64,000 nt of DNA from Hyphomicrobiales bacterium. Its GTDB lineage: Bacteria > Pseudomonadota > Alphaproteobacteria > Rhizobiales > Rhizobiaceae. Position 1 is the stretch's first letter. Each line of letters opens with the position of its first letter. Below the pieces are notes generated by a model. The model worked only from the letters and a program-made list of their open reading frames with translations, made no database searches and was not told where the DNA came from. The stretch lies in assembly GCA_900471815.1 (NCBI GenBank), contig UICE01000001.1, forward strand, positions 335,114 through 399,113, read 5' to 3'. Positions 358 through 46,687 of the stretch are shown here, piece after piece. A program made the translations under genes and the position numbers.

Positions 358-3300
358 ATGCCCTCATTAAGCTTTTTTCCAGCGTTCGCATCTCAGAAGA
401 AAACCGTCGGCCAGATTTTTTCTGTCCAGCCAAACCCGATCCGGGCACATTATAAGTCGATTGACGATTTGCGTGATCTTGGCGCACGGGTTGCCAAGGG
501 CGAAGATGTACGCCTGCCTGATTACGAGCCCATGGTTTTTGAGCAAAGAACCGTTGAAAATGCACGGTTGATCTTACACTCTTACCGATCTTCGGATGCC
601 GCGGCCCGTAAAGGCGAAACCATTACCCCAGCGGCTCAATGGCTGCTCGACAACTACTATCTTGTTGACCAAAACATCCAGCAGGTCGAACGCGATCTGC
701 CCAAGAAATTCATTCGGCAATTGCCTTCGCTTGTAAGTCAGAGCGATATACCGCGCGTTATGGCTCTGGCGTGGCTCTATGTGGCCCACACAGACAGCCA
801 ATTCTCGCTGAACAGCCTCAGCGCAATTGTTGAAGGTTTTCAAACTGTCGAGCCGCTGCATATCGGCGAATTGTGGGCTCTGCCCTCTGCCGTCCGCTTC
901 ATCCTGATCGAAAATGCAAGACGTCTTTCCTTGCGTGTTGAGCGTGCACGGCGCATGCGCGCCTTTGCCAATAGCGTTGCTGATGAGATTACGCTGAACG
1001 CGGAAAAAGACACACTGCCCCAGATGCTGGAACAGTATACGACGGCGGCGCGGGACAGCACCTTTGCGACGCACCTGCTTTATCGCCTGCGTGGTGGCGC
1101 CATGCACTCCGGAGCGGCAGTGGCGTGGCTGGAAGAGGTGCTGGAAAAGAACGGCAGCGATGCCGAGGACGCGATTATTCAGGAACATACCCGCCAGTCC
1201 ACTGGCGGCGTGACGATGGGAAACCTTATCCGCAGCCTGAAGGCTATCGACGATGTTGACTGGATTACATGGTTTGAAACAGTCAGTGGTGTAGATGCTG
1301 TTCTGCGCGAAAATTCCAATTTCGACGCGCTCGACTTTCATTCGCGTAATGCCTACCGCGTTGCCATCGAAAAGATTGCGCGTCGTTCCGGCAAAAGCGA
1401 AAATGACATTACGCAGGCCGCACTTGAGCTTGCGCATAAGAGCGCGGAACAGACCGGCGGTGAAGGCGGGGTTCCCGAACAGCGCAAACGTGACGTAGGC
1501 TATTACCTTGCCGGCGATGGGCGGCCCGAGCTTGAGGCAGTTTGCGATTATACACCGACGCTGATTTTGCGTTGGGTGCGTTTCTACCGCAATCTTGGTC
1601 TTGCAGGATTATGGGTGCCAGCCTCCATTTTTTCGATCGCCATATTGCTTGTGGTCCATTACTGGCTGACGCGTGCTGGCTTGCCCCGCGATCTGGTTCT
1701 GCTGTTTACAATCCTGGCGGTTTTTCCGACCATGGAAACTGCAAACGGCTTTGTTAACTGGATCATTCCAATGTTCATGCCGCCCACGCGGTTGATTGGT
1801 TTTGAGTATAAGAACGGCCTGCCTCCAGAGGCGAAAACACTTGTAGCCGTGCCCACATTAATCACTTCGCGGGATTCAGTCGATGAACACATCCGTAATC
1901 TCGAAGTTCACTATCTGACCAATCCGCGAGGCGAAGTCTATTTCGCACTGCTGACGGATTGGGCGGACAGCAAAGTTGAACAAAGCGACGATGATCTGGA
2001 CATATTGGATTATGCCCGCGAAAAAATCACCGCGCTCAACAACCATTATACACAGAGCAATCCCCGGTTTTTCCTCCTTCATCGCAAGCGCCTTTTCAAT
2101 GCCCAAGAAAATCGCTGGATGGGTTGGGAGCGCAAGCGCGGTAAACTGCATGAGCTGAACCTGCTGCTACGCGGTGATAAAGATACGACCTATTTCCCCT
2201 CCAATGAAGTTATCCCGACCGACATCAAGTTCGTGATGACACTGGATTCGGACACACGTCTTACACCTGATTCAGTCAACCGCCTTGCGGGCAAGCTCAT
2301 CCATCCCCTCAACCGTCCGATTTACAGCGAGAAAGCCGGTCGCATTGTAAGTGGTTATGCAATTTTGCAACCGCGCGTCACGCCGTCGCTGACGACTGGT
2401 GACGATGCCTCCTTCCTGCAACGGGTATTCTCCGTCAATCGCGGCATTGACCCTTATGTCTTTGCTGTTTCTGACGTTTATCAGGATGTCGTTGGCGAAG
2501 GCACGTTCACCGGCAAAGGCCTTTATGACATCGATTTCTTCGAGCTCGCCCTTGATGGCAAAATTGGTGAAAACACAATCCTGAGCCACGATTTGCTCGA
2601 AGGTGGTTATGCCCGTGCGGCTTTGGTCAGCGATGTGGAAGTCGTCGAAGACTATCCTACCGGCTATAATGTCGATATTTCGCGTCACCACCGCTGGACC
2701 CGTGGTGACTGGCAATTATTGCCGTACCTGTTCAGCACCAAGCCTGGAATTACCGCTGTTACCCGATGGAAAATGGTGGATAATCTGCGCCGTTCGCTGA
2801 CGCCGATTTTCTGGATTCTGGCATCCATTGCAGCTTGGACATTGCTGCCGCCCGGCATCGCTGCCTTGTGGCAGTTCTTCATGATTTTCAGCATGTTCAT
2901 CGTACCAACGATGATCCTGTTCACCAATCTTGTGCCTACGGACATGAACCTTTCACTAAAGGGGCATTTCCAAGCCATTTTAACGGACATATTTGCTGGT
3001 GCTGCGGATATTGCCCTGCGCATTACCTTCATTGCCAACATGGCTTGTCTCATGGCAGATGCAATTGCGCGTACTTTGTACCGCCTGTTTGTCTCGCGCA
3101 AAAATCTTCTGGAGTGGCGCGCTGCCGCCCAAGCCAAGACAAGCTCGCCTGACACGTTGCAATATTATACGCGTCTGATGTGGCCAGCGGTCATCGTTGC
3201 ACTGGTTGCAATTATCCTGCCGCTCGCTGGCCATAGCCGCGCCTGGATGCTTGCGGTCCCGTTTGCCGCAATCTGGTTTTTCTCGCCGGTTATTGCCTGG

Positions 3301-41465: not shown

Positions 41466-43670
41466 TCAATTTCCCATGATGAGATCGAACAGCGTTGTCT
41501 TGCGACCTGCCTGACCGTTTTGACCCACGTCTCCCGGTGGAATAGGTCTCGTAGATCCAGTCTGGTCGCCAAGTCCAACCTGCGTGCCGGGGTCGAGTTG
41601 TGCTGATGGAGCTGAAGGATCAACACCCGAATCAGGCAAAATATCATTGCCCTCTTCGATCAATTTATCGAGGCGATAATCTCCGGGAAGCGGTGCGATG
41701 GGAACGCCCTTATGGGCTGCCACCATGAAATCTTTCCAAGCGATTGCCGGTAACGATCCGCCGGTGATCTTCTTCGTTGGCTTGCCGTTATCGTTGCCGA
41801 ACCACACGCCTGTCGTCAGATTGGACGTATAGCCAATAAACCAGGCATCACGGAAGTTCTGGCTGGTTCCGGTCTTGCCAGCTGCCGGCCAGCCAAATCT
41901 TGCCTTGGTTGCCGTGCCAGTCTCGATAGTCTGGCTCAACATGGCGTTCATCATGCTGAGATTGCGCGGGCTTACAACACGGTCCGGTGTCGGCCCCTTA
42001 TACTCAAAAAGCAGCTTACCGCTATTCGTGGTGACACGGCGAATAATGTGGACAGGTGCCTTGTAGCCTCCATTGGCAAATGGGACAAAGGAATCTGTCA
42101 GTTCCAGCAAAGTTACTTCAGATGTGCCGAGGGCCAGCGAAGCATTCGACGTAAGGCTGGAATCGATGCCAAGACGATGAGCCGTTGAGACAACGGTTGC
42201 AGGTCCCACTTCCATGACAAGTTGCGCAGATACGGAATTGAGCGAGCGGGCCAGTGCTTCAGCCAATGTTACTTTGCCAAAATATTTTCCATTGTAATTT
42301 CCTGGTGTCCATTTGCCGATGCGGATTGGCGCATCATTGCGAATAGATTCCGGCGTAAGTCCCTTTTCCAAAGCAGAAAGATAAACGAAAGGCTTGAAGG
42401 CCGATCCCGGCTGGCGCTTTGCCTCGCTGGCCCGGTCAAACTGACTGTTGGCGTAATCATACCCGCCTACGAGAGCGCGCACGGCGCCTGTTCCATCAAC
42501 TGAGACCAGCGCGCCTTGCGAAACATTCAACTTCTCACCGTTTTTACTGATGAGATCGCGGATCGATGCTTCTCCCAACTTCTGCAAGCCAAGATCCACA
42601 GTGGTATCAACCACAATATCATTCGATACATCGCCGATTAGATTTGGCAACTCCTCCATGACGCGGTCAGCAACATACTGTTCTGATCCTGACCAATAGG
42701 AAGCGGCGCGTGCTGTAGGCTGCTTCATCGCCACATCCAATTCGTCAACGCCGATCATGCCTTGCTCACGCATTGCAGCAAGCACCAATTGCGAACGTTC
42801 GCGGGCAGCTTTTGGATCACGTGCAGGTGACAAACGCGAAGGAGCCTTGAGCAGACCCGCAAGCAGCGCAGCTTCTGGCAAGGTCACTTCTTTGGCTGAT
42901 TTGTTGAAGTACCGGTGCGATGCAGCGGCCACACCATAAGAGCCAGACCCCAGATAGACCCGATTAAGATACATCTCCAGGATTTGTGTCTTGGTATATT
43001 TCTGCTCCAGCCACAGCGCCAGCAATACCTCCTGAACCTTGCGTTCAAGGGTGCGATCAGGTGTCAGGAAAAGATTCTTGGCCAACTGCTGGGTGATCGT
43101 CGAGCCCCCCTGTACCAAGCGACCCGAAATCACATTGGTTACCATCGCCCGGGCAAAGCCAATAGGATCGACGCCAAAATGCGAATAGAACCGGCGATCT
43201 TCAATGGCAATAACCGCCTCAGGTATATAGGGCGACATATCATGCAGCCCGATTGCCTCTCCGCCCGAAGCGCCACGATTGGCAATCAATTCGCTTTCCA
43301 CGGAAACTATCCTAACGTTGGGTGCACGGTCAGGAATGGTCCATGTCGTCGTCTGGGGCATCTTGGCGGCGAAATAGAGAACCGTGGCTGTCAGAGCGAT
43401 TCCACCCCAAATGCATAAAACAAACGACCAATAAACTGCGCGGCGCAGCAACCCAATAAATCCACTGCCGTTTTTGCTGCGGCGTGAGCTGCTACGCTTT
43501 GACTTTGAGACTTTGCGCACTGCCGATTTGCGTTTTGCCACGGGCCTATCCTCCGGATCTGCACGCATGTCATCGCTCGAATCCCGACCGGAGCCAAAGC
43601 CGGGTTCGATGCGTTGCCTGCCTTTATCGCGTGGTGCCATTGATGATAAATTCCGCGCCGTTGTACCCAT
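41466..43670 (-). CDS. Class A penicillin-binding protein (PBP1A family)
   Basis: A bifunctional peptidoglycan synthase. A basic cytoplasmic N terminus precedes one membrane helix (about 78-98). The GT51 domain has EDRRFYSHFGVDP and GGSTITQQLAKN; the transpeptidase has S423-xx-K (SAFK), SLN and KTGTS motifs. The C terminus is proline rich. ATG 43670 lacks a clear ribosome-binding site, and M11 (43640) is an alternative. The integrated element begins only 41 bp upstream, so its native promoter may have been displaced. Confidence 0.94.
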   Translation of the reverse strand: MGTTARNLSSMAPRDKGRQRIEPGFGSGRDSSDDMRADPEDRPVAKRKSAVRKVSKSKRSSSRRSKNGSGFIGLLRRAVYWSFVLCIWGGIALTATVLYFAAKMPQTTTWTIPDRAPNVRIVSVESELIANRGASGGEAIGLHDMSPYIPEAVIAIEDRRFYSHFGVDPIGFARAMVTNVISGRLVQGGSTITQQLAKNLFLTPDRTLERKVQEVLLALWLEQKYTKTQILEMYLNRVYLGSGSYGVAAASHRYFNKSAKEVTLPEAALLAGLLKAPSRLSPARDPKAARERSQLVLAAMREQGMIGVDELDVAMKQPTARAASYWSGSEQYVADRVMEELPNLIGDVSNDIVVDTTVDLGLQKLGEASIRDLISKNGEKLNVSQGALVSVDGTGAVRALVGGYDYANSQFDRASEAKRQPGSAFKPFVYLSALEKGLTPESIRNDAPIRIGKWTPGNYNGKYFGKVTLAEALARSLNSVSAQLVMEVGPATVVSTAHRLGIDSSLTSNASLALGTSEVTLLELTDSFVPFANGGYKAPVHIIRRVTTNSGKLLFEYKGPTPDRVVSPRNLSMMNAMLSQTIETGTATKARFGWPAAGKTGTSQNFRDAWFIGYTSNLTTGVWFGNDNGKPTKKITGGSLPAIAWKDFMVAAHKGVPIAPLPGDYRLDKLIEEGNDILPDSGVDPSAPSAQLDPGTQVGLGDQTGSTRPIPPGDVGQNGQAGRKTTLFDLIMGN

Positions 43671-43711
43671 CTGGAGTGATAGCCACGCGTTGCAGAGTAA
43701 ATGCGGCGATT

Positions 43712-43725
43712 TAAGGTGCGGTTAA
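43712..43725. repeat. Left copy of 14-bp direct repeat (candidate attL core)
   Basis: TAAGGTGCGGTTAA is identical at 61812-61825. It lies between the penicillin-binding-protein gene and the 3' end of the integrase gene. Together with the preceding T it forms TTAA-N7-TTAA, the full CtrA-box pattern. Confidence 0.75.
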
Positions 43726-43773
43726 AAACACAGCTGTTAATTATTGTTCATGTTCAATGCATTGGCACGGGCG

Positions 43774-43804
43774 CGTTACCGCCCGTTACCGCTTCCGTTA
43801 CCGC
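43774..43804. repeat. Three direct repeats of CGTTACCGC next to the candidate attL
   Basis: Copies lie at 43774-43782, 43784-43792 and 43796-43804, with start-to-start spacings of 10 and 12 bp. They overlap the 3' end of int, where they encode SGNGSGNGR, and lie about 50-90 bp from the core repeat. They could be integrase or Xis arm-binding sites, or simply a repetitive protein tail. Confidence 0.5.
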
Positions 43805-45005
43805 TCTGTTCTCGACCCTTCAGTCGAGCATCTGCAAAGCGGTCTGCTGCTGCTTCATTTGCTCGGTCATAGACCGATGAAGTTGTGCGTGTTCCACTGT
43901 GTCCAGCGACCTTCGCAGCATCGTCCGTGGTGGCGCCTGATGCCCTGCCCTCGGTTATTCCCGATGCACGTAAGTCACGAGCCCAGACCTTCGGATCTAT
44001 GTTTGCAGCCTTGCGATCTTCTGCCCATCGCTCGGTTATCGTGCGAGAGATGTAAGGCAAGCTTGTTGCTTCCGAAACGACGACAGGCCCAACGCGCTTC
44101 TCGATAGGCCAATACTTTAGTTCTTCGAGGACCATTGGCGCTTTTGACAACGGATAAACAACTGTCTTGCCCGAGGTGTTGGATGTCTTGGACGGCGTGA
44201 ACTTCAACTGGAGATTGTCATCAATGTTCTCCCAACGAAGACCAAACCACTTCAAGCCAGCCTGCGCATCTATCACATCTGAAACGCCACCTCTCTCGAT
44301 TGGCCACCATTGGCCAGAAACATCCCACAGGCGCAACGTTGTCTCGTAGACCAATGCGTACAGGAGTGCCGAGGATGGCCTTCCAGCGGCATGCGCCGCG
44401 TTTCTGGCAGCGATGGCCTGATCTGCTGTTAGAACCGCTTCACGGCGCCTTGGTTGAGGTAAGCCGGCGCGTGCTGTTTGAAGGATTTCACGAAGTTCGA
44501 TACATCCCTCGAAGCGGCGCAAGATGCCATGCCTCACCGCTGCTTCCAGCACAGCGCGACAGGTAGCAGCAGCGGCAAGCTTCCTGTCACTGCCACTCCA
44601 CACTTTATGCCAGCGGATAACGTCGATGCCCATTATTGAGTCCACGCGCCGCGGACCAATGTGCTCTTCAAGTTTGGCGATATAGTGCTTGTACGGGACG
44701 AGCGAGCCTGGCTTGAGTTTGTGAAACGCGCTTTCCTCGTCGCGCTGATAGACCGAAAACAAACTCCGAAGAGTCCCATCAAATGCCAACGGGTCGTGAC
44801 GATATCCGGTACGCCACAGCAGCATGTCAGCCTGCAGGGCATTACATTTTGCCACAAGCATTTCTGGGTTATCTTTTAGGAATCCAAGATTAACTGTTTT
44901 CGGACAATAGCCGCGCTTAACATCTTCCTCATTGGCCACCCACACGGGTACGTGTCCAGAGGCGCGCTTCATCCACTTCAAACCTAGTGCTTTCGGCCTT
45001 TCCAT
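43776..45005 (-). CDS. int: Phage tyrosine-recombinase integrase
   Basis: Catalyses site-specific integration and excision. The 409-residue protein has an N-terminal arm-binding/SAM-like region and a C-terminal catalytic domain. Catalytic residues visible include Arg in TTLRLWDV, Arg in DLRAS, His369 in GHSGTRTTSS and nucleophile Tyr379 in SSVYDR. The HxxR His is replaced (DLRAS). A GGGAGGGCGA ribosome-binding site supports 45005. It overlaps the upstream xis-like gene by 22 bp and reads toward the left repeat. Confidence 0.95.
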   Translation of the reverse strand: MERPKALGLKWMKRASGHVPVWVANEEDVKRGYCPKTVNLGFLKDNPEMLVAKCNALQADMLLWRTGYRHDPLAFDGTLRSLFSVYQRDEESAFHKLKPGSLVPYKHYIAKLEEHIGPRRVDSIMGIDVIRWHKVWSGSDRKLAAAATCRAVLEAAVRHGILRRFEGCIELREILQTARAGLPQPRRREAVLTADQAIAARNAAHAAGRPSSALLYALVYETTLRLWDVSGQWWPIERGGVSDVIDAQAGLKWFGLRWENIDDNLQLKFTPSKTSNTSGKTVVYPLSKAPMVLEELKYWPIEKRVGPVVVSEATSLPYISRTITERWAEDRKAANIDPKVWARDLRASGITEGRASGATTDDAAKVAGHSGTRTTSSVYDRANEAAADRFADARLKGREQSGNGSGNGR

Positions 45006-45268
45006 TCGCCCTCCCCTCGGTCAGGCATGCCACCCTTACCGACTGTTATTCCCAGATAGCTCTCATAGAAAACCCGAACCAACGGAACCGCTCGACCACC
45101 GTGAAAGGCGTCAATCTTCGGAAAACCTGGCTTGCCTGATATGGTCGGCAGGCGTTCCTTCATCCAGCGTGTCGCTGCCTTTTTGCCGACGATTGCCTCG
45201 GCTATCTCCACATCGCTCGCGAACAGCGGCAATCGCGAAAATGGGTCATTGTCATTTGCTGCTCGCAT
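44984..45268 (-). CDS. Excisionase-like small DNA-binding protein
   Basis: A 94-residue protein with an HTH-like stretch (VEIAEAIVGKKAATRWMKERLP) and a beta-wing-like FPKIDAFHGGRAVPLVRVFYES. It resembles the small winged-helix proteins that accompany integrases in Hyphomicrobiales phages. The ATG at 45268 has a strong AAGGAGGG ribosome-binding site; a longer frame to 45334 does not. Overlap with int implies coupled translation. The role as Xis is inferred from position. Its N terminus contains AANDND, a motif that recurs in this element. Confidence 0.7.
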   Translation of the reverse strand: MRAANDNDPFSRLPLFASDVEIAEAIVGKKAATRWMKERLPTISGKPGFPKIDAFHGGRAVPLVRVFYESYLGITVGKGGMPDRGEGEWKGRKH

Positions 45269-45396
45269 GTGTCCCTCCTTCTTATAGACTCGCCTATCTA
45301 CGATGATGTGCGCGCATCGCGCATATGAATTCACTTAGTCAGGCTGTTTTGCTGGTGGATATATAAAAGGGCGGCTGTGGTGAGCAGCGACCCTAT

Positions 45397-45473
45397 TGGC
45401 GAACACGGTAGGATTCGAACCCACAACCAGAGGAGTAGAAATCCTCCGCGCTATCCAATTGCGCTACGTGCCC
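45397..45473 (-). tRNA. tRNA-Arg (anticodon UCU)
   Basis: A complete cloverleaf. The acceptor GGGCACG/CGTGTTC includes two G-U pairs, the D-stem is GCGC/GCGC, the anticodon stem is GAGGA/TCCTC with loop TTTCTAC, and the T-arm is GTGGG-TTCGAAT-CCTAC. The discriminator is G and CCA is encoded. The anticodon (complement of 45437-45439) reads AGA. It lies inside the element between an AGA-rich mini-frame and xis-int, on the same strand. No second copy of its 3' end occurs in the window, so it does not look like the integration target. Confidence 0.97.
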
Positions 45474-45499
45474 TTTGTTCGTGGGTGGCCACCCGGTAG

Positions 45500-45526
45500 T
45501 CATCTTCTTTTCTGGCGTCTTCTCAT
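45500..45526 (-). other. Eight-codon mini-frame rich in AGA, just 5' of tRNA-Arg(UCU)
   Basis: Encodes M-R-R-R-Q-K-R-R and stop. Codons 2, 3, 7 and 8 are AGA, the codon read by the tRNA 27 bp downstream. A strong ribosome-binding site (GAGGAGAG) lies 4 bases before the ATG. GGGTGGCCACCC, a 12-bp palindrome, follows the stop. Its stop also overlaps an ATG (ATGA) opening a 36-codon frame that runs through the tRNA and ends at 45393. A regulatory role is inference. Confidence 0.55.
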
Positions 45527-45600
45527 CTAACTCTCCTCGTGTTGGCCGCTTGCTTGGGAGGACGTGCGGCGTGGTGATGTGGTGGCGGTTGGTCGGACCG

Positions 45601-45906
45601 TTATTCTGCTGCCATCATGAAGGCTGGAGGGAGGCTGGTAATAAGCCTGGCAATCTGTCGTGTGTAGCACTGATGCTGGTTGTAACCCTCAAGGCACGCA
45701 ATCGCATCGAGCTTGGCCTGCCGATCTTCTTCCGTACGAGACTGTAACTCCACCAGTGCATCAATTACGGCCAGCCCCGCATCGCGCAGGTGGTTCATGG
45801 CTTCGTCTGGCATATCGCAAAGGTACTTGGCGCCCATGATCTGAACCAGAAGGCTAGACAGGTCTTGAAGCTCGGTTCTTCTCGGGGTGTCGATCTGTGT
45901 TGGCAT
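45601..45906 (-). CDS. Hypothetical phage protein (first gene of integration operon)
   Basis: 101 residues, largely helical by composition, with no recognised family. The ATG at 45906 follows a GAGGAGA ribosome-binding site, and a TTGACG-N17-TATGCA promoter lies about 45-70 bp upstream. It is the first gene of a likely transcript that continues through the AGA mini-frame, the tRNA, xis-like and int. A role in control of integration is possible but unproven. Confidence 0.7.
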   Translation of the reverse strand: MPTQIDTPRRTELQDLSSLLVQIMGAKYLCDMPDEAMNHLRDAGLAVIDALVELQSRTEEDRQAKLDAIACLEGYNQHQCYTRQIARLITSLPPAFMMAAE

Positions 45907-45928
45907 TGCTGGTCTCCTCGGTTGATAA

Positions 45929-46004
45929 TGTAATGCAGTGTCATGCAATGCATAACAAACGTTTTTATAGCCGTCAACAGGAAAATGCAGTACATTGTAT
46001 TACA
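45929..46004. promoter_or_regulatory. Divergent control region with a pair of 19-bp inverted operator-like sites
   Basis: Site A (45929-45947, plus strand) and site B (45986-46004, minus strand) share 15 of 19 positions (TGTAATRCARTGT..TGCA). Between them is a minus-strand promoter with -35 TTGACG (45977-45972) and -10 TATGCA (45954-45949), spacing 17. Site A covers the expected transcription start and site B lies upstream of the -35. The region separates the integration operon from the plus-strand ribbon-helix-helix gene. Confidence 0.6.
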
Positions 46005-46025
46005 CCACCATAGGAGAACCACCGA

Positions 46026-46181
46026 ATGTCTAAAACTGCCAATTTGGCGCTACGAATCCCGCCAAACGTAAAGGTAGCTTTGGAACAAGCAGCAAAAGCC
46101 GATCGGCGAACTGTTTCCAGCTACGTCGAGGTAATTATTATCGATGATTTAGAGGCGAAGGGGTTTTTGCCCAAAGAATGA
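46026..46181 (+). CDS. Small ribbon-helix-helix (Arc-type) DNA-binding protein
   Basis: A 51-residue protein: a short beta strand (TANLALRIPP) is followed by two helices (VKVALEQAAKADRRT and VSSYVEVIIIDDLEAKG), the Arc/MetJ pattern. An AGGAG ribosome-binding site precedes the ATG by about 10 bases. Such proteins are usually autorepressors. It is divergent from the integration operon and next to the two 19-bp inverted sites, which are plausible binding targets. Confidence 0.8.
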   Translation: MSKTANLALRIPPNVKVALEQAAKADRRTVSSYVEVIIIDDLEAKGFLPKE

Positions 46182-46194
46182 TACGGGAGAGTAG

Positions 46195-46395
46195 ATGAAA
46201 GCTCGCAACGATAAAGTCACACTTGCGGACATAGAGCGCGCACTCATCGTCTATGCAGGCCTATACGACCTGTACGGAGAGTGCATGAAGCCGCTCCTTG
46301 ACCGGATGGAGCGTGAATATATGGCAGCCAAAAGCAAAGTGAATCAAATGAATAGAATTCGAAAGTTAATCGCTGGCCCGGTAGAAATTCAATGA
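46195..46395 (+). CDS. Hypothetical small phage protein
   Basis: 66 residues, predicted mainly helical (LADIERALIVYAGLYDLYGE, then a charged helix through about 60). It begins 13 bp after the ribbon-helix-helix gene with a GGGAGAG ribosome-binding site. No family is recognised. It is probably part of the same early plus-strand transcript. Confidence 0.65.
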   Translation: MKARNDKVTLADIERALIVYAGLYDLYGECMKPLLDRMEREYMAAKSKVNQMNRIRKLIAGPVEIQ

Positions 46396-46426: not shown

Positions 46427-46687
46427 TTGAACACTCAATTCCTGTTGCTCGCCCAATATGGGATGCGTCCAACGATCACTGTGGATGAGCTTTGTCGGGA
46501 TTACTTTACCCACCTTACCGTGGAGAAATTCCTGCGTAAGGTTAGTCTTGGCGAGATTAATATCCCGCTGATGCGTTTGGAGGGCAGCCAACGCAGCGCG
46601 AAGTGTGTGCACGTCCTCGATTTAGCGGCATACATTGACGAAAGGCGTGCGGAGGCGCTTAGAGAATTCAGCCAACTCCACGGATAG
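46427..46687 (+). CDS. PrtN-like (pyocin activator) family protein
   Basis: 86 residues with the PrtN pattern: MNTQFLLLAQYG, then DYFTHLTVEKFLRKVSLGEINIPLMRLEGSQ and a VLDLAAYIDERR C terminus. In Pseudomonas PrtN turns on pyocin genes through P-boxes; the family is common in alphaproteobacterial prophages. The TTG start has a GGAG ribosome-binding site. It is the only recognisable activator in the element and could drive late or accessory genes. Confidence 0.85.
   Translation: MNTQFLLLAQYGMRPTITVDELCRDYFTHLTVEKFLRKVSLGEINIPLMRLEGSQRSAKCVHVLDLAAYIDERRAEALREFSQLHG

What the first reader, a model, noticed from the sequence alone, without database searches (positions are those of the whole stretch)
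45393..45526. AGA-rich mini-frame directly upstream of the phage tRNA-Arg(UCU) and the xis-int genes
The minus strand has a strong ribosome-binding site, then an eight-codon frame M-R-R-R-Q-K-R-R using AGA at four of seven sense positions after ATG, then a 12-bp palindrome, then a complete tRNA-Arg(UCU) that reads AGA, then xis-like and int. Known precedent: lambda int expression depends on scarce AGA/AGG tRNA, and AGA minigenes can trap peptidyl-tRNA-Arg. Inference: the frame may sense or titrate charged tRNA-Arg(UCU) and so tune integrase expression or tRNA release. A 36-codon frame coupled by ATGA runs through the tRNA.
Basis: partly seen in the sequence, partly recalled or inferred. Interest (0 to 1): 0.75.

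Follow-up and report, generated by a model that had tools for sequence, protein, structure and literature searches.

The report
AGA-codon leader before phage tRNA-Arg
In related viruses of the soil bacterium Phyllobacterium, a tiny gene made mostly of the codon AGA sits just in front of the gene for the tRNA that reads AGA, and the pair stays together while the sequence around it changes, so the tiny gene probably senses or adjusts the supply of that tRNA.

Summary
The minus strand has an SD site, ATG AGA AGA CGC CAG AAA AGA AGA TGA (45526-45500), GGGTGGCCACCC, then tRNA-Arg(UCU). Five further prophage loci (six in all, in five Phyllobacterium genomes) have an SD-led frame of 6-10 codons before a tRNA(UCU). 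AGA is 25 of 28 Arg codons in the six frames, against 5% in host ORFs of the window. Five of six keep the palindrome, 7-9 nt after the last AGA pair, although the stop codon moves. A relative without the tRNA also lacks the palindrome. Integrases, upstream genes and tRNA bodies differ; the leader hardly does.

Control of integrase is not supported: terminator-like hairpins follow the tRNA (clear in four of five, weak in the window), and two copies lie about 40 kb from the nearest integrase. The ATGA-coupled frame is not conserved.

Best reading: a translated, cis-acting AGA sensor for the tRNA it precedes (0.42); direction of control unknown, all regulation inferred. Found only in Phyllobacterium. 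By-product: nine tRNA(UCU)-like genes without a D-arm, mostly in Rhizobiaceae prophage-like loci; eight start 6-7 nt after the stop codon of the frame upstream.

The parts
45500..45526 (-). AGA-rich mini-frame, M-R-R-R-Q-K-R-R
   Evidence: equivalent frames in five further loci
45532..45538 (-). Shine-Dalgarno site GAGGAGA
   Evidence: AGGAGA is invariant in 6 of 6 aligned leaders
45553..45562 (-). Invariant element TCCTCCCAAG, complementary to the SD (possible SD-masking hairpin)
   Evidence: 10 of 10 bases in 6 of 6 leaders; pairing predicted by RNAalifold without covariation
45483..45494 (.). Palindrome GGGTGGCCACCC between frame and tRNA
   Evidence: exact in 5 of 6 loci; one copy per stretch examined
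45397..45473 (-). tRNA-Arg(UCU), CCA encoded
   Evidence: ARAGORN; Rfam
45368..45394 (-). Terminator-like hairpin followed by TTTTATAT (weak)
   Evidence: fold of 60 nt, -13.6 kcal/mol; not listed by the consensus scan
45601..45906 (-). Upstream gene, 101 aa, no Pfam match; relatives precede other copies
44984..45268 (-).
   Evidence: 94 aa, no family match
43776..45005 (-). Tyrosine integrase, context only
   Evidence: PHROG 1, E 9e-18

Best explanation
The mini-frame is a translated leader of the tRNA-Arg(UCU) gene. Shown: a strong SD, a short in-frame run of AGA codons, a 12-nt palindrome at a near-fixed distance from the last AGA pair, then the tRNA that reads AGA, conserved as a unit. Inferred: frame and tRNA lie on one RNA that also carries the upstream gene and is cut at the tRNA by RNase P; ribosomes slow or drop off at AGA-AGA when charged tRNA-Arg(UCU) is scarce. 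A ribosome held at the last pair would cover the start of the palindrome; one that finishes and leaves would let the hairpin form. That changes stability, processing or onward transcription and so sets how much tRNA is made: a supply loop in which the product reads its own leader. Which way the switch works is unknown.
For: Six loci in five genomes. AGA 25 of 28 Arg codons in the frames (summed by hand) against 5.1% and 6.3% in host and prophage ORFs. The two AGA pairs are AGA at all four codons in W, P628, Pbour and G006, although about half of the shared integrase Arg codons are spelled differently between W, P628 and Pbour and 59-64% of fourfold sites differ. Indels inside the frame are multiples of 3. 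Last AGA pair to palindrome 7-9 nt in 5 of 5, stop to palindrome 1-5 nt. G013 lacks tRNA and palindrome together. The cassette stays with different integrases, upstream genes and tRNA bodies 61-83% identical. No SD-led mini-frame before the host tRNA-Arg(UCU) in 3 of 3 loci tested.
Against: No terminator lies between frame and tRNA, so there is no classical attenuator. The 4-bp palindrome hairpin is weak (-3.5 to -5.0 kcal/mol) and no helix of the leader shows covariation. G011 has AAA for one AGA; C12 keeps four AGA but lacks the palindrome. G013 keeps a tiny AGA-AGA-stop frame without any tRNA. Upstream of the ATG the frame is open for 76, 15 and 40 codons in P628, Pbour and G006, so the start is inferred from the SD. 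The phyllobacterial locus G002 has a tRNA(UCU)-like gene without a mini-frame, as have five others. Few loci, one genus; nothing measured.
Confidence: 0.42

Rival explanations
1. AGA minigene trap: translating the frame makes peptidyl-tRNA-Arg drop off and ties up the cell's AGA-reading tRNA early in infection or induction, while the tRNA on the same transcript makes good the loss. The palindrome may protect the 3' end of the small mRNA that RNase P releases.
For: Short frame, strong SD, AGA at codons 2-3 and next to the stop. PMC2408971 (passages) says depletion of rare tRNAs by minigenes is toxic, AGA and AGG among the worst; PMC6456624 (passages) reports that early tandem rare Arg codons block translation in E. 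coli and that extra tRNA relieves this. Lambda bar-type minigenes are recalled.
Against: The tandem-codon data are from E. coli. The conserved palindrome position is not needed for it. No gain for the phage is shown.
Confidence: 0.2
2. Termination coupling: the frame serves to bring a ribosome close to the 5' end of the tRNA, shielding or presenting the RNA for processing; codon choice is secondary.
For: In 8 of 9 D-arm-less tRNA(UCU)-like genes an open frame of at least 40 codons stops 6-7 nt before the tRNA, in C12 the AGA frame stops 5 nt before it, in the five canonical copies the mini-frame stops 21-27 nt before it. PMC8708949 (passages) argues that a minigene can protect an mRNA.
Against: Does not explain 25 of 28 Arg codons as AGA, nor the constant AGA-palindrome distance while the stop moves.
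Confidence: 0.18
3. Not a coding element: AGAAGA plus palindrome is a protein- or RNA-binding site that happens to be open.
For: Exact palindrome and near-constant spacing.
Against: SD, start and stop are kept; indels in the frame are multiples of 3; AGA pairs persist where the palindrome is absent (C12, G013). One copy per stretch examined, unlike a typical operator set.
Confidence: 0.08
4. The product is a functional arginine-rich peptide, for instance an RNA binder.
For: All six peptides are very basic.
Against: AGA rather than the host's usual CGC is kept; the middle and the length vary.
Confidence: 0.06

Closest known systems
Ribosome-mediated leader-peptide attenuation (trp, his leaders)
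   Same: Short SD-led frame with tandem codons for the limiting tRNA, followed by a hairpin-forming sequence
   Different: The downstream gene is the tRNA itself; no terminator/antiterminator pair was found
AGA minigenes and rare-Arg control of lambda int (Zahn and Landy 1996 seen only as a reference; minigene work recalled)
   Same: Phage setting, tiny frame, AGA at codons 2-3 and near the stop
   Different: Linked to a tRNA gene, not to int; carries a conserved palindrome
tRNA-dependent lysogeny (PMC10865867, abstract and outline)
   Same: A temperate phage carries one tRNA near its integration region
   Different: Host tRNA-Arg(UCU) is intact; no leader frame is mentioned in the abstract
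Phage tRNAs that evade anticodon nucleases (PMC10264068, two passages; PMC11555353, listing only)
   Same: Phage tRNAs differ from the host's; 3 of 5 canonical ones have UUUCUAC where the host has CUUCUAA (by eye)
   Different: No nuclease or resistance shown here; the word 'upstream' does not occur in the main text of PMC10264068

Membership tests
Ribosome-mediated transcription attenuator | Leader frame with tandem codons for the sensed tRNA | tested here: met
   AGA pairs in six frames
Ribosome-mediated transcription attenuator | Mutually exclusive terminator and antiterminator between frame and gene | tested here: not met
   Only an SD helix and a 4-bp palindrome hairpin are predicted, no terminator
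AGA minigene of the lambda bar kind | Very short SD-led frame with AGA at start and end | tested here: met
   6-10 codons
AGA minigene of the lambda bar kind | Drop-off and dependence on peptidyl-tRNA hydrolase | not testable with these tools
   needs an experiment
tRNA-dependent lysogeny | Integration disrupts the host tRNA of the same isotype | tested here: not met
   Host-type tRNA-Arg(UCU) sequence in 19 of 19 genus genomes by pattern, complete by ARAGORN in 3 of 3 loci tested, the window's own genome included
Anticodon-nuclease-evading phage tRNA | Anticodon-loop changes against the host tRNA | tested here: inconclusive
   Present in 3 of 5 canonical copies, absent in 2
Anticodon-nuclease-evading phage tRNA | Resistance of the phage tRNA to a host tRNA-cutting defence | not testable with these tools
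   needs an experiment

The most novel reading that the evidence does not exclude
A sense-and-replace device: a phage tRNA gene controlled by ribosome stalling at its own codon. To my knowledge it would be the first tRNA gene under a cognate-codon leader frame. The wider operon family carries a second form, a D-arm-less tRNA(UCU) whose start lies 6-7 nt after a stop codon.
Probability: 0.2. Interest if true: 0.85.

Novelty: new variant of a known kind. Interest (0 to 1): 0.62.

Why it matters
Why temperate phages carry single tRNAs is debated (codon supply, defence evasion, lysogeny). In the window's prophage AGA is about as rare as in the host (6.3% and 5.1% of Arg codons), and the host has its own tRNA-Arg(UCU), so plain codon supply is a poor explanation. 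A tRNA gene tied to a mini-frame of its own codon makes feedback control of tRNA supply testable with a few recoded reporters. The D-arm-less UCU family adds a possible new tRNA architecture in bacterial viruses.

Tried and rejected
Integrase control in cis: no sign of a shared unit (hairpins after the tRNA; distant int in G011 and C12; other int in G006). ATGA-coupled frame: not conserved. tRNA-dependent lysogeny: host tRNA intact. Classical attenuator: no terminator. Repeated operator: one palindrome per stretch; with up to 2 mismatches 4 matches in the window against 2.1 expected. Attachment core: no second copy of 43640-43790 in the genome.

Wider searches for the cassette. Family pattern, 394 genomes, 9 with a match, only the window's locus has a tRNA. 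Model R2, 394 family genomes: two own copies plus 4 weak matches, none followed by a tRNA. Model R2, 397 order genomes: only the own copies at E<=1e-4. Over 40 genomes that tool uses stricter filters that lose weak matches. Genome contigs pattern: 14 stretches, 2 real, both Phyllobacterium. Viral contigs patterns: 20, 16, 7 and 3 stretches; the only real cassette is L037, whose printed stretch equals the P. bourgognense copy. Plasmids: no match. Phages: matches to the tRNA part, 20 of 27 records listed; the one read closely, a Bordetella phage, shows by eye no AGA mini-frame. 28 viral contigs with a relative of the G006 xis-like protein: no tRNA-Arg by ARAGORN and no D-arm-less tRNA at the score of known members. 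R1 in 19 genus genomes: 13 matches, 6 kept, 7 weak ones (E 0.05-0.71) dropped; ARAGORN on six of these seven found no adjacent tRNA.

Leader folds: SD masking, palindrome hairpin and a long-range GGCCA:UGGCC pairing each fit some sequences; with six sequences none is proven.

No paper with a cognate-codon frame before a tRNA gene was seen in the listings of the paper search; the library holds open-licence papers only and the listings were capped, so this is weak.

Full report
WHAT IS THERE. On the minus strand: TCCTCCCAAG (45562-45553), SD GAGGAGA (45538-45532), frame ATG AGA AGA CGC CAG AAA AGA AGA TGA (45526-45500), GGGTGGCCACCC (45494-45483), tRNA-Arg(UCU) (45473-45397), a weak terminator-like hairpin, a small gene and the integrase. 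The genus is taken to be Phyllobacterium: contigs with the same lengths as G009:C12 and G012:C1 are named P. bourgognense and Phyllobacterium sp. 628.

CONSERVATION. A search of 59 relative genomes with the integrase matched 6: the window's own, three of the same genus at 86-88% identity, and two distant ones. Of the three, P628 (G012) and Pbour (G009) have the same cassette; G013 has neither tRNA nor palindrome, and its frame is GTG AAC AGA AGA TAG. A pattern search of 20 genus genomes matched 4 and added G006, with another small gene and integrase. A leader-only model over 19 genus genomes added G011 and a second copy in the window's own genome, C12: six loci in five genomes. Frames after ATG: W AGA AGA CGC CAG AAA AGA AGA TGA; P628 AGA AGA CTG ACC AAA AGA AGA TCG TAA; Pbour AGA AGA GCC CAG ACT AGA AGA AGA CGC TAA; G006 AGA AGA AGA CCG TAC AAA AGA AGA CGC TAA; G011 AGA AAA CTG ACC AAA AGA AGA TGA; C12 ACG AGA AGA AGA AGA TGA. 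That is 25 AGA among 28 Arg codons and 45 sense codons after the start (summed by hand).

CODON OR PEPTIDE. AGA is 5.1% of Arg codons in 30 host ORFs and 6.3% in 15 prophage ORFs of the window. Between W, P628 and Pbour about half of the shared integrase Arg codons differ in spelling (18 of 35, 18 of 36, 21 of 34) and 59-64% of fourfold sites differ, but the two AGA pairs of the frame are unchanged there and in G006; G011 has AAA at one of the four places. The cassette may have moved on its own, so integrase divergence is only a yardstick. Indels inside the frame are multiples of 3. The last AGA pair lies 7-9 nt from the palindrome in 5 of 5 palindrome-bearing copies, while the stop lies 1-5 nt from it. 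A ribosome covers about 10-12 nt beyond its A site (recalled), so one waiting at the last AGA would reach the palindrome. The start codon is inferred from the SD: upstream of it the frame is closed at once in W, but open for 76, 15 and 40 codons in P628, Pbour and G006.

THE UNIT. In P628, Pbour, G006, G011 and C12 an ORF on the opposite strand that looks by eye like an XRE-type repressor lies just before the gene that precedes the cassette; in the window the opposite-strand gene weakly resembles Arc-type repressors. The preceding gene is of three types; two may be remotely related, since searches with both hit the same G194 gene. tRNA bodies are 61-83% identical to each other and 62-86% to the host's. 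So the leader stays while its neighbours vary. That it belongs to an early, repressor-controlled operon is inferred; the scan found no sigma-70-type promoter on the minus strand of 44900-46200.

NOT INTEGRASE CONTROL. Hairpins after the tRNA fold at -13.6 kcal/mol in the window and -19.6, -25.7, -20.3 and -19.9 in P628, Pbour, G006 and G011, the last four with a T-run; the consensus scan lists none on the minus strand in the window. In G011 and C12 the cassette lies next to tRNA-Asn, and the nearest Pfam integrase match on the contig is about 40 kb away. If that is the int of the same prophage, the cassette would lie across attP from it in the circular genome (inference), so a loose link with the integration region remains.

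DISTRIBUTION. No further copy was found outside Phyllobacterium (searches in Tried and rejected). It is either lineage-specific or too changed elsewhere for these patterns and models.

D-ARM-LESS tRNAs. Searches with two of the upstream protein types matched 4 of 337 and 5 of 337 family genomes and led to tRNA-like genes. With C12 and viral contigs there are nine distinct ones: L093, L169, L170, L173, L174, L175, L179, L184, L185. ARAGORN missed the seven it was run on. All nine have TTCTA in the anticodon loop and end in CCA. Over the first seven, acceptor and T stems pair in 100% of cells, with both-sided changes in 4 and 3 pairs. Instead of a D-arm there are 5-6 nt before the anticodon arm; a segment such as CCGUAACGGAUCAU follows it and could pair with the 5' piece (82% of cells, one pair with a both-sided change), weak evidence for an extended anticodon stem with a D-loop-like strand behind it. 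Five seem by eye to have 8-nt anticodon loops. Of five loci given to Rfam, L093 and L170 pass its tRNA cut-off; L173, L174 and L175 gave no match at E up to 1 for this gene. In 8 of 9 an open frame of at least 40 codons stops 6-7 nt before the tRNA; in C12 the AGA frame stops 5 nt before it. No SD-led mini-frame precedes the six other members tested. Blast with one of them found nothing in phage or plasmid records. The paper search listed nothing to the point.

VERDICT. The AGA frame goes with the tRNA, not with integrase. A cognate-codon leader that adjusts tRNA-Arg(UCU) output is the best explanation (0.42); an AGA minigene trap (0.20) and termination coupling (0.18) stay open. Conservation and codon choice are shown; every regulatory step is inferred.

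Noticed in passing
L093:1584-1666, L169:1793-1870, L170:1772-1848, L173:1488-1409, L174:1781-1859, L175:1214-1139, L179:7300-7376, L184:12711-12788, L185:6675-6751: Nine distinct tRNA(UCU)-like genes without a D-arm and with a long segment between anticodon arm and T-arm; acceptor and T stems covary. Eight start 6-7 nt after the stop of the frame upstream.
   Followed up: partly
L166 (viral contig), about 1430-1500, minus strand: ATG AGA AGA TAG without an SD, about 33 nt before a tRNA-Arg(UCU) in an unrelated tRNA cluster; by eye it lies in the loop of a long perfect hairpin.
   Followed up: no
G013:C4:449334-449360 (L149): A 3' half of the host tRNA-Arg(UCU), as an attachment-site duplicate would leave; the full gene is elsewhere in that genome.
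   Followed up: no
L126 (G032:C12:30883-30928): SD-led frame ATG AGC AAT AAA AGA AGA TGA followed by a GC-rich hairpin-like sequence, no tRNA next to it; perhaps chance.
   Followed up: no
window 45906-45601 (minus) and L161:17450-17755: The upstream gene itself has AGA AGA at codons 9-10 in both copies.
   Followed up: no
window 46427-46687 (+): Protein of the PrtN pyocin-activator family (Pfam E 4.8e-27), called excisionase in PHROGs, on the strand opposite the cassette.
   Followed up: no
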